Assembly (NCBI GenBank): GCA_003223215.1
Contig: QHYH01000110.1
Coordinates: forward strand, 1-64,000
Length of the DNA stretch: 64,000 bases
Direction of reading: 5' to 3'
Source of the DNA: Acidobacteriota bacterium
Lineage (GTDB): Bacteria; Acidobacteriota; Terriglobia; Acidiferrales; UBA7541
Shown here: positions 30,115 through 64,000 of the stretch, one piece after another
How positions within the stretch are numbered: the first letter of the stretch is position 1
Layout: every line of letters starts with the position of its first letter
Program-made: the position numbers and the translations under genes
Notes under the pieces: generated by a model
What the model was told of the DNA's origin: nothing
The model's database searches: none
What the model saw: only the letters and a program-made list of their open reading frames with translations

Positions 30115-30139
30115 GCGCAGAGGACGGCGGGTGCTCCCC

Positions 30140-30195
30140 GCCGTAATGCGGCACCGCCGGTTCCAAGCCCGGCAGAAAAGAGGTTCTATGAAAAG
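30140..30195 (+). repeat. Duplicated leader, copy 2, before a 20-codon ORF
   Basis: GCCGTAATGCGGCACCGCCGGTTCCAAGCCCGGCAGAAAAGAGGTTCTATGAAAA; ORF MKSDAQAVVEECRSTNANLG*. Confidence 0.6.
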
Positions 30196-59977: not shown

Positions 59978-61570
59978 ATGAAAGTCATCGTCGCGGACAA
60001 GATCAGTGAGCGAGGCGTGAAACTGTTGAAGGAGCAGGACGGCTGGACGACCGTCCTGACCACAAAAGAGACGCTCGAAGCGGAAATTACCGATGCCGAT
60101 GCATTGATCGTGCGCAGCGCGACGAAAGTCACCGAGCATCTGCTCGCCAGGGCCCCTAAGCTGCGCGCGGTGGGCCGCGCTGGCGTCGGCGTGGACAATA
60201 TTAATTTGGAAGCAGCCACGAAGCGCGGCGTGCTGGTGATGAGCACGCCCGGCGGAAACTCCGTGAGCGTGGCCGAGCATACCTTCGCTTTGCTTCTGTC
60301 GCTTGCGCGGCAGGTGCCGCGGCTGGACAGAGCTATCCACGAGGGGCGCTGGGAAAAATCCTCCGCAGCGGGAACCGAAGTGCGCGGGAAAACGCTCGGG
60401 CTTGTGGGCCTCGGAAGAATCGGGAGCGAAGTGGCCGTGCGCGCGGAGGCGTTTGATATGCGCGTGCTGGCTTACGACCCATTCATCAGCGAAGCGGCGG
60501 CGCATGAAATATCGGTCGAACTTGTGCCGCTTGACCAGCTGTTGGCGGAGAGCGACTTTGTTTCCCTGCACGCGGCGCTCAGTCCGGCGACGCAGAATCT
60601 CATCAGCGCGGCAAATATCCAGAAAATGAAAAAAGGCGCGCGCATCATTAACACCGCGCGCGGTGAATTGGTGGACGAAAGCGCGCTGGCGGCCGCGTTA
60701 AAAAGCGGCAAGCTTGCCGGCGCGGCGGTGGACGTGTTCTCGGAAGAACCTCCGAAAAACTCTCCTTTGGTCGGACTGCCTTACGTGATTGCCACGCCGC
60801 ACGTGGCGGGTTCGACCGCGGAAGCGCAGGAGGAAGTCGGCACGCAAGTGGCCGTGCAGATCAAGGATTACCTTGCGGAAGGAATTATCCGCAATGCGGT
60901 GAATCTTCCGGCGCTGTCGGCTGATCAATACCGTCGCGTGCGGCCCTATCTGGAGTTGGCGGAGCGGCTCGGGTCGCTGGTTTCGCAAGCAGCGCCTGCA
61001 CGCCCCGCCCGAATTCGCATTCGCTACGCGGGCGAGGTCGCCGAAGTAGGCACGCACTTGCTCCGGAGCGCGGTGCTCTCAGGTGTGCTGAACGCGGTCT
61101 TGGACCAGAAGGTCAACGTGGTGAACGCGTCGGCGATAGCCGCGGCACGCGGCCTAAGCGTTGAGGAAGAAACACGAAGGCGCGAACGCGGCTTCCCGAA
61201 CACCTTGGAAGTCTCGGCGCTGCCGGAAAAGACAGGCTCGGCGTGCGGCTTTACGGCGGAGGGAACGGTTGTGCATGACGGCTCGCCGCGCGTCCTCGCG
61301 ATCGAGGGTATTCCGCTCGAAGCCCAGCTCGAGGGGACAATCCTCTATTTGCGGAACCGCGACGAGCCGGGCGTGATTGGCCAAGTGGGAACGACGCTCG
61401 GAAAGCTTGGAGTGAATATCGCGACGTTTGCCTTGGGTCGGCGCGAAGCCGTCCAGGGAGCAGAAGCTGCTGCGCTCGTGCGCGTGGACGGCGTGGTTTC
61501 CCCATCCATTCTGGAGCCCATCCGCGCGATTCCCGCCATTACCGAGGCCAAGTTGCTCCGGCTGTCCTAG
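59978..61570 (+). CDS. serA: D-3-phosphoglycerate dehydrogenase
   Basis: MKVIVADKISERGVKLLKEQ; GRAGVGVDNINLEAATKRGVLVMSTPGGNSVSVAEHTFALLLSLAR; LGLVGLGRIGSEVA; C-terminal ACT domain. Confidence 0.97.
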   Translation: MKVIVADKISERGVKLLKEQDGWTTVLTTKETLEAEITDADALIVRSATKVTEHLLARAPKLRAVGRAGVGVDNINLEAATKRGVLVMSTPGGNSVSVAEHTFALLLSLARQVPRLDRAIHEGRWEKSSAAGTEVRGKTLGLVGLGRIGSEVAVRAEAFDMRVLAYDPFISEAAAHEISVELVPLDQLLAESDFVSLHAALSPATQNLISAANIQKMKKGARIINTARGELVDESALAAALKSGKLAGAAVDVFSEEPPKNSPLVGLPYVIATPHVAGSTAEAQEEVGTQVAVQIKDYLAEGIIRNAVNLPALSADQYRRVRPYLELAERLGSLVSQAAPARPARIRIRYAGEVAEVGTHLLRSAVLSGVLNAVLDQKVNVVNASAIAAARGLSVEEETRRRERGFPNTLEVSALPEKTGSACGFTAEGTVVHDGSPRVLAIEGIPLEAQLEGTILYLRNRDEPGVIGQVGTTLGKLGVNIATFALGRREAVQGAEAAALVRVDGVVSPSILEPIRAIPAITEAKLLRLS

Positions 61571-61578
61571 GGGAAGAA

Positions 61579-61697
61579 CTAGTACTCTCGAAACGACCCT
61601 CGTCCATCATTCGGAAAAAACGAATTAAACCGATTTGATAAAGAATTTAGAAGAACTTTCCTTGACAGAAATATGAACCTGTCCTAAAAGTATAGCA
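61579..61697 (+). repeat. Promoter/leader direct repeat, copy 1
   Basis: CTAGTACTCTCGAAACGAC...TTAAACCGATTTGATAAAG...TTGACAGAAA...CTGTCCTAAAAG shared with 62588-62716. Confidence 0.85.
61662..61690 (+). promoter_or_regulatory. Putative sigma70-like promoter in repeat copy 1
   Basis: TTGACA-17 nt-TAAAAG. Confidence 0.5.
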
Positions 61698-62344
61698 ACT
61701 ACGCGAACTCGGATTTTGACCTCCGTCACGTCGTCAATGTGAATGCGATCTACGAGCTTCCCTTTGGGCGCGGCAAACTCCTGGCTGGCGGAGCCGGGCG
61801 GGGGCTGGATGCTCTCATCGGCGGCTGGCAGCTATCTGGTATTTTCCGCTGGAACACAGGTTTGCCGGTCAGCGCTCCGATCGACGACGCACGCTGGGCG
61901 ACGAATTTCCAGGTCCAGTCTTGGACGAGCTTGACCAGACCACTAAGCACCTGTGTCACCAAGGGAAACGCTACTACTGCTCCGAAGCTTTTTGGCTGTG
62001 ATCCGACATTTGCTTATCAGAGCTTCCGGAATGCCTATCCGGGAGAAACCGGAATGCGGAATATCTTCCAGCTACCGGGGCAAACCAACCTTGACGCCGG
62101 ACTCAGCAAGTCGTTCAGCTTGCCATGGAGCGAAAAACAGAAATTGCAGCTCCGTTGGGAGGTTTTCAACGTGGCTAATTTCCAGCCGTTGGGTGTGCTC
62201 GACAACAGCCGCAGCGGTTTCGGCATCGCATCTGACCCGTTGGTCCGGAACCTACAACCTGCAAAGAACTTCTCCAATTTCACGGCTATTCAGACAACGG
62301 CCGCTCCACGCTCCATGCAGGTCGGCCTTCGTTATTCCTTCTGA
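61691..62344 (+). pseudogene. C-terminal stub of an Oar-like TonB-dependent receptor
   Basis: SNYANSDFDLRHVVNVNAIYELPFGRGKLL...LQLRWEVFNVANFQPLG...APRSMQVGLRYSF* is a C-terminal barrel end; no plug or N-terminus upstream. Confidence 0.85.
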
Positions 62345-62587
62345 GGACTATTCATTTTTGGCCGCCGGGTGGTAAATGCTTCCCGGCGGCTTTTTTTTCT
62401 CGCAACGATTCGGCTAGAGATGGCGCCGGGGGAATCGAAGGTCTTCAGGTCTTCTGATGGGTTGGCCGGAACGAAAGTGGAAGGGGACGAGAATCATGCT
62501 GGCCCGCCCGCCAGTGTCGCAAGGGGGTGGCGGCTTTTTCCTATCCCATGGTGTCCAGGTGTAATCTCATAGGTCTTAGCGCAGGGC

Positions 62588-62716
62588 CTAGTACTCTCGA
62601 AACGACACTCTCCCGTCATCCGAAAATCCACTTAAACCGATTTGATAAAGGGTCTAGAAGAAAGGTTAAGAAAGGTCCCTTGACAGAAAGCCTCAAACTG
62701 TCCTAAAAGCTAGGAC
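62588..62716 (+). repeat. Promoter/leader direct repeat, copy 2
   Basis: Matches 61579-61697 with scattered differences. Confidence 0.85.
62680..62709 (+). promoter_or_regulatory. Putative sigma70-like promoter in repeat copy 2
   Basis: TTGACA-18 nt-TAAAAG about 170 bp upstream of the TonB receptor ATG. Confidence 0.5.
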
Positions 62717-62881
62717 AACGGTTGCTGTCGAGTAGCGGGGAAGGTTGCCTAAAGTCTATCTACTTTTTGGTTTAGAAGCATGAAGCCTTAGGCCACCTGA
62801 AGGCCACCTGGCCTTTCGGTTTCCCGGCGCCTTCTGCCTGCTCTTGTCCCATTCAGTAAAGGTGCGCGAAAGGAGCAGTCT

Positions 62882-64000
62882 ATGAAGCGGTCATTTCTTA
62901 TTGGCAGTCTCGCGGTGTTGGTCTGCCTGCTACTCTTCCCGGGAACCGGCTGGGGACAGACCGGCGCATCGACCATTCGCGGAAGCGTGAAAGATCAATC
63001 CGGCGCGCTCGTTTCCGGTGCAACGGTGACGCTCACCAATCTAGAGACGAACGCCGTTCGGACTGCAGAAACCACGACGTCGGGGGCATTCGCATTTGAA
63101 CTTGTTCCGGTTGGCGATTACGAAGTAAGAATTGAGGCGAAGGGCTTCCGAAAATCGATTGTCCGCCCAGTGCAGGCTCTCGTGGCAAACGTGACCGATG
63201 TCCCCGTGACACTGGAGATCGGCGAATTGAGCTCGACGGTGACCGTTGAGGCCGCGGAGGCCACGGTTCAGGTAAACACGCAAGATGCGACACTGGGTAA
63301 CAACTTCGTTGCGCAACAAATCACGCAACTTCCCATGGAATCGCGCAACGTCCTCTCGCTCTTGACGCTGCAGGCACAAGTGACCCCGGACGGATACGTG
63401 GCCGGGGGACGCAGCGATCAGTCGAACGTTACGCTGGACGGTGTGGACATTAACGACGCGGAGACCAGCGATGTTAAAGCGCCGGTGCTGCGCTTAAATG
63501 CCGAAGCCATCGAAGAGTTTCGGGTAGTTACGGTGGGATCCAACGCCGACGAAGGGCGGTCGTCCGCGGCGCAAATCAATCTTGTGACGAAGAGCGGCAC
63601 GAATTCGTGGCATGGATCGGCGTTCGAATTCCACCGTAACACGATTTTTACCGCGAACGACTTGTTCAACAAACTTAGCGGTGTGGATCGTCCAAAGCTT
63701 CTCCGCAACGTGTTTGGTGGAACGCTGGGCGGACCAATCGCGAAGAACAAGCTATTTTTCTTTTATAGCTATGAGGCGAGGCGCGACGCGAGTGGTACCT
63801 CGATTACGTCCCTGGTGCCTCTCTCCGTATTGGGGCAAGGTCAGCTCATCGTGAACGCCCAGCGTTGCACCAAGGCGGTTCCACCGGCCACCACGGATAC
63901 ATGCGAGACGCCGCAAACCTTCACACTTACCACTCCTCAACTCGACAATGCCTGGAACGTAGTGCATACAAACCCAATTGCCATTCAGACCCTCAAGGAT
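62882..64000 (+). CDS. TonB-dependent receptor (Oar-like), 3' end beyond the window
   Basis: Read by eye, open from ATG 62882 to the window end: signal peptide, STIRGSVKDQSGALVSGATVTLTNLETN, AGGRSDQSNVTLDGVDINDAE, GTNSWHGSAFEFHRN; absent from the ORF track because no stop lies in the window. Confidence 0.93.
   Translation, partial: MKRSFLIGSLAVLVCLLLFPGTGWGQTGASTIRGSVKDQSGALVSGATVTLTNLETNAVRTAETTTSGAFAFELVPVGDYEVRIEAKGFRKSIVRPVQALVANVTDVPVTLEIGELSSTVTVEAAEATVQVNTQDATLGNNFVAQQITQLPMESRNVLSLLTLQAQVTPDGYVAGGRSDQSNVTLDGVDINDAETSDVKAPVLRLNAEAIEEFRVVTVGSNADEGRSSAAQINLVTKSGTNSWHGSAFEFHRNTIFTANDLFNKLSGVDRPKLLRNVFGGTLGGPIAKNKLFFFYSYEARRDASGTSITSLVPLSVLGQGQLIVNAQRCTKAVPPATTDTCETPQTFTLTTPQLDNAWNVVHTNPIAIQTLKD

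What the first reader, a model, noticed from the sequence alone, without database searches (positions are those of the whole stretch)
61579..62720. Promoter/leader repeat placed on a TonB-receptor C-terminal stub and again before an intact receptor
About 120 bp (CTAGTACTCTCGAAACGAC...AAACCGATTTGATAAAG...TTGACA-N17/18-TAAAAG) is repeated 1 kb apart. After copy 2 comes a normal leader and a TonB receptor ATG (62882). After copy 1 the sequence switches immediately, within the -10/+1 region, into the last ~215 codons of a TonB receptor. This is consistent with an ancestral tandem array of two receptor genes with the same promoter, where a deletion fused the first promoter to its own 3' end. The preserved promoter means an untranslated or truncated barrel transcript might still be made.
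Basis: partly seen in the sequence, partly recalled or inferred. Interest (0 to 1): 0.65.

Follow-up and report, generated by a model that had tools for sequence, protein, structure and literature searches.

The report
Receptor gene deleted down to promoter-tail fusion
In a soil acidobacterium, one of two neighbouring nutrient-receptor genes has lost about 3.3 kb of its start and middle, so its promoter now sits directly on the last 215 codons; a close relative still carries the intact pair, so this is mainly a clean case of ordinary gene decay.

Summary
A promoter block occurs at 61579-61690 and again at 62588-62709. Copy 2 leads to an intact 1273-aa TonB-receptor-like gene (62882-66703, partly beyond the window). 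Copy 1 switches at about 61694-61697, the predicted transcription start, into the last 215 codons of a different receptor (61% aa identity to the neighbour's C-terminus).

The nearest relative found, gp2 acidobacterium MAG AA88 (QHYM01000151.1), has serA, promoter 1, intact receptor 1, promoter 2 and receptor 2 in order. Relative to AA88 the window lacks about 3.34 kb, found nowhere else in the assembly. The joined ends share only 2-4 bp.

A promoter pattern finds 19 sites in 36 congeneric genomes, with no control matches. Eighteen precede a receptor start; window copy 1 is the exception. It marks one, mostly serA-linked, receptor locus, not a wide regulon.

The stub is 93.7% identical to AA88 while syntenic flanks never exceed 87.4%, so receptor 1 was probably exchanged between lineages before or at the deletion. 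Intact copies share a conserved ~170-nt leader that copy 1 lost. The stub is most likely a recent pseudogene.

The parts
59978..61570 (+). serA (D-3-phosphoglycerate dehydrogenase, 530 aa), conserved upstream neighbour of the receptor locus
   Evidence: Pfam 2-Hacid_dh, 2-Hacid_dh_C, PGDH_inter, ACT; adjacent to the promoter/receptor in many congeneric genomes
61579..61690 (+). Promoter block copy 1 (-35 TTGACA 61662-61667, -10-like TAAAAG 61685-61690)
   Evidence: 87% identical to AA88 promoter 1
61694..61698 (+). Deletion junction: promoter-side sequence passes into receptor codons through CAA/CAAC, at the predicted +1
   Evidence: three-way comparison with AA88 promoter 1 (L049 ~6616) and AA88 receptor 1 (L049 ~9957)
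61697..62344 (+). C-terminal stub (215 codons plus stop) of receptor 1, end of the outer-membrane beta-barrel; no stop inside, no start codon at its beginning
   Evidence: PF25183 positions 672-838; 93.7% nt identity to AA88 receptor 1; start candidates
62359..62400 (+). Intrinsic-terminator-like hairpin (GCCGCCGGG...CCCGGCGGC) plus T8 after the stub
   Evidence: sequence, fold -25.5 kcal/mol
62588..62709 (+). Promoter block copy 2, in front of the intact receptor
62710..62881 (+). Conserved ~170-nt leader of the receptor family, ending in GGTGCGCGAAAGGAGCAGTCT before ATG; absent after copy 1
62882..64000 (+). Intact receptor 2, N-terminal part (gene continues to contig position 66703, 1273 aa)

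Best explanation
This is a recent loss-of-function deletion in a tandem pair of TonB-receptor-like genes downstream of serA. The ancestor had two receptors, each with its own copy of the same promoter and leader. Receptor 1 (or its 3' part) was exchanged with an AA88-like lineage at some point. A ~3.3-kb deletion between positions sharing only 2-4 bp then removed the leader, signal peptide, plug region and most of the barrel of receptor 1, joining promoter 1 near its +1 to codon ~1059. What remains is a pseudogene that may still give a ~0.7-kb RNA ending at its terminator, without a usable start at its 5' end. Shown: the intact arrangement in a relative and the missing segment. Inferred: the exchange (from divergence), the mechanism (short-homology, RecA-independent deletion), and lack of a working product. 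Untested: transcription.
For: AA88 keeps serA, P1, intact receptor 1 (about 1272 aa from its conserved ATG), P2 and receptor 2 in order. The missing 3341 bp of AA88 has only 67-82% paralogous matches in the window genome. Eighteen of 19 promoter-pattern sites in the genus are followed by a receptor N-terminus about 155-245 nt on; window copy 1 is the exception. The stub frame is open with dN 0.014 and dS 0.26, versus dS 0.86 for serA and 0.78 for the receptor 2 N-terminus. The highest 645-nt window identity in ~18 kb of synteny not overlapping the stub is 87.4%. A second genome of the genus (G015) has an independently decayed receptor, homologous to receptor 2, in the same slot.
Against: No reads are available, so a chimeric assembly cannot be fully excluded. 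The stub shows no frameshift or stop, which fits either a recent event or residual selection. Only one close relative with the ancestral-type arrangement is known, and it is itself a MAG. The direction of exchange cannot be told.
Confidence: 0.83

Rival explanations
1. Assembly artefact: receptor 1 is intact in the organism and the assembler skipped or collapsed ~3.3 kb.
For: The genome is a 279-contig draft, and tandem paralogues with repeated promoters can confuse assemblers.
Against: The two receptors are only ~65% identical in DNA and the longest exact stretch shared by the promoter copies is about 20 bp. The junction joins a promoter to a coding region with 2-4 bp in common. The missing segment is not found on another contig.
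Confidence: 0.06
2. The stub is a one-step foreign insertion or replacement: a C-terminal receptor fragment from an AA88-like donor was joined beside promoter 1 in the same event that removed the resident gene, rather than by a later deletion.
For: Identity jumps from ~84-87% to 93.7% exactly at the junction and drops again at the stop codon.
Against: Promoter 1, the tandem order and the position are as in AA88, which points to a resident receptor 1; the 5' exchange boundary could simply lie inside the deleted part.
Confidence: 0.07
3. The stub is a retained functional element: an expressed C-terminal fragment, a regulatory RNA, or a silent 3' cassette that donates sequence to expressed receptors by gene conversion.
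For: The promoter and open frame are preserved. The stub alone is unusually similar to AA88. A second truncated receptor occurs in the same slot in G015. One internal ATG (62054) has GGGAG 8 nt upstream and could give a 96-aa fragment.
Against: No start codon at the 5' end and no signal peptide. The stub and its neighbour's C-terminus are only 61% identical, so there was no recent conversion between them. G015's fragment is frameshifted. A recent deletion already explains the open frame.
Confidence: 0.04

Closest known systems
AA88 gp2 acidobacterium receptor tandem (QHYM01000151.1)
   Same: Same gene order, promoters and receptor 1 C-terminus (97% aa over the stub)
   Different: Receptor 1 is intact in AA88; the window lacks ~3.34 kb of it
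Short-homology (RecA-independent) deletion in bacteria (general knowledge)
   Same: Junction with only a few shared bases; the homologous paralogues were not the recombination substrate
   Different: Mechanism not tested; no ancestral sequence of this very strain
Acidobacterial TonB-receptor-like proteins with CarboxypepD_reg and OMP_b-brl_4 domains
   Same: Receptor 2 has both domains; the stub has the C-terminal end of the barrel
   Different: The stub lacks signal peptide, regulatory-like domain, plug region and most of the barrel

Membership tests
TonB-receptor-like protein (CarboxypepD_reg + OMP_b-brl_4): receptor 2 | N-terminal carboxypeptidase-regulatory-like domain and C-terminal outer-membrane barrel | tested here: met
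   PF13620 9.9e-18 and PF25183 1.1e-134
TonB-receptor-like protein (CarboxypepD_reg + OMP_b-brl_4): receptor 2 | Plug domain, or the general TonB_dep_Rec barrel at its curated cut-off | tested here: inconclusive
   No plug match; PF00593 21.6 bits, below the 27 cut-off
TonB-receptor-like protein: stub | Complete coding sequence with start, signal peptide, plug and full barrel | tested here: not met
   Only profile positions 672-838 of 838; no start at its 5' end
Pseudogene by deletion | Intact orthologue in a relative at the same place | tested here: met
   AA88 / L049
Pseudogene by deletion | No functional product | not testable with these tools
   Needs RNA and protein data
Shared promoter regulon of many receptors | Promoter in front of many of the genome's 40 or so receptor-like genes | tested here: not met
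   Strict pattern finds only C141 copy 1 and C9 in the own genome (copy 2 misses the strict form); across the genus mostly one site per genome

The most novel reading that the evidence does not exclude
The serA-linked slot is an exchange site in which receptor genes or their tails are swapped between lineages behind a conserved promoter and leader, and truncated copies such as this stub are donors or by-products of that exchange.
Probability: 0.08. Interest if true: 0.6.

Novelty: new member of a known kind. Interest (0 to 1): 0.3.

Why it matters
It gives a before-and-after pair for receptor loss in a poorly studied soil group, and it exposes a receptor locus next to serA whose promoter and leader are conserved although the receptors themselves are often only about 35% identical. 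That contrast suggests either strong constraint on regulation or replacement of receptors behind a fixed control region. The stub itself is ordinary gene decay.

Tried and rejected
A shared receptor regulon was tested by pattern searches and rejected: only the serA-linked family and a few relatives carry the promoter. A mobile-element origin: no match on plasmids or viral contigs. A relocated receptor 1 elsewhere in the genome: not found. A conserved leader RNA structure: Rfam gives nothing there, the single-sequence fold is no better than shuffles, RNAalifold finds 10 pairs with no compensatory change, and a hand-drawn long-range helix pairs 80% of cells but does not clearly exceed shuffles; so structure is not shown. 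Literature searches found no description of this locus and nothing of direct use on the deletion mechanism.

Full report
Observation. The two promoter blocks are real and specific: both 19-mers occur exactly twice in the window, with none expected in shuffles, and TAGTACTCTCGAAACGAC with up to two mismatches occurs only at these two places in the 8.8-Mb assembly. After copy 2 there is a ~170-nt leader and an intact gene, 62882-66703, of 1273 aa with CarboxypepD_reg and OMP_b-brl_4 domains. After copy 1 the sequence passes at about 61694-61697 into an open frame of 215 codons that matches the last part of the barrel profile and residues ~1059-1273 of the neighbour at 61% identity. With -10 TAAAAG at 61685-61690, the expected start of transcription is about 61697, that is, at the junction itself (inference).

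Ancestral-type state. A scan of genomes returned one very close relative, gp2 acidobacterium MAG AA88 (QHYM01000151.1 = L049 = G032:C475), with serA, promoter 1, an intact receptor 1, promoter 2 and the start of receptor 2. The window aligns to L049 up to 6616 and again from 9958, so ~3.34 kb is missing relative to AA88: leader, N-terminus and most of the barrel. At the joint the two AA88 ends share only CAA or CAAC with the window. The missing segment has no close copy elsewhere in the window genome. This supports a real deletion and speaks against an assembly split, though reads were not available.

Locus context. The pattern AACTT..CTTGAC-N16-20-YTAAAA gives 19 sites in 16 of 36 genomes of the genus and none for the reversed control. 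Every site but window copy 1 is followed by a receptor N-terminus. Where upstream DNA is in view serA usually precedes the first receptor (exceptions: the C9 copy of the window genome and G031), and AA88 and G017 each have two receptors in tandem with one promoter each. So this is one receptor locus with local duplications plus a few dispersed copies, not a regulon. In G015 the same slot holds a different receptor fragment, homologous to receptor 2 at 78-85% identity, with its N-terminus missing, an internal deletion and a frame change. Receptor loss here has thus happened more than once.

Age and exchange. The stub differs from AA88 by 7 non-synonymous and 33 synonymous codons, dN 0.014, dS 0.26. 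Neighbouring genes have dS 0.86 (serA) and 0.78 (receptor 2 N-terminus), and the two genes further upstream are more divergent still. Over ~18 kb of synteny, windows not touching the stub reach at most 87.4% identity against 93.7% for the stub. In the genus only AA88 has a close match; the next is 66%. The simplest reading is that receptor 1 was exchanged between lineages after the species split, and the deletion came later or with it. The lack of stops and the few changes fit a recent event.

Function. The stub has lost the conserved leader with its ribosome-binding site (GGTGCGCGAAAGGAGCAGT before ATG), the signal peptide and the plug region. Its in-frame start codons are internal; the first is a GTG at 61739 without Shine-Dalgarno, and the only one with a fair purine stretch is ATG 62054, which would give 96 residues without a signal peptide. 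A ~0.7-kb transcript ending at the hairpin near 62359-62400 is possible; a working outer-membrane protein is not expected.

Leader. The intact copies share conserved leader blocks even where receptors are ~35% identical. Attempts to show a conserved RNA structure were inconclusive, and Rfam has no family there. It is recorded as a lead only.

Verdict. The result is a well-documented example of a known process, with an interesting side question about receptor exchange behind a fixed promoter and leader.

Noticed in passing
62710-62884; L127-L141: A ~170-nt leader with conserved blocks (GAGTGGYGGGGAAGGTTGCC, CCGGCRCCTTCC, GGTGCGCGAAAGGAGCAGTYYATG) precedes the serA-linked receptors in about 15 congeneric genomes although the receptors are often only ~35% identical; RNA structure not demonstrated.
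   Followed up: partly
L128 4189-6358 (G015:C99): Another decayed receptor directly after serA in a different genome: N-terminus missing, internal deletion and frame change, homologous to window receptor 2 (78-85% aa).
   Followed up: partly
61697-62341 against L049 9959-10603: Identity island of 93.7% to AA88 in a region whose flanks are 73-87% identical; suggests lineage exchange of receptor 1.
   Followed up: partly
window 30116-30172: Rfam match to a type-P5 twister ribozyme (55.9 bits, above the gathering score of 37.6) on the + strand.
   Followed up: no
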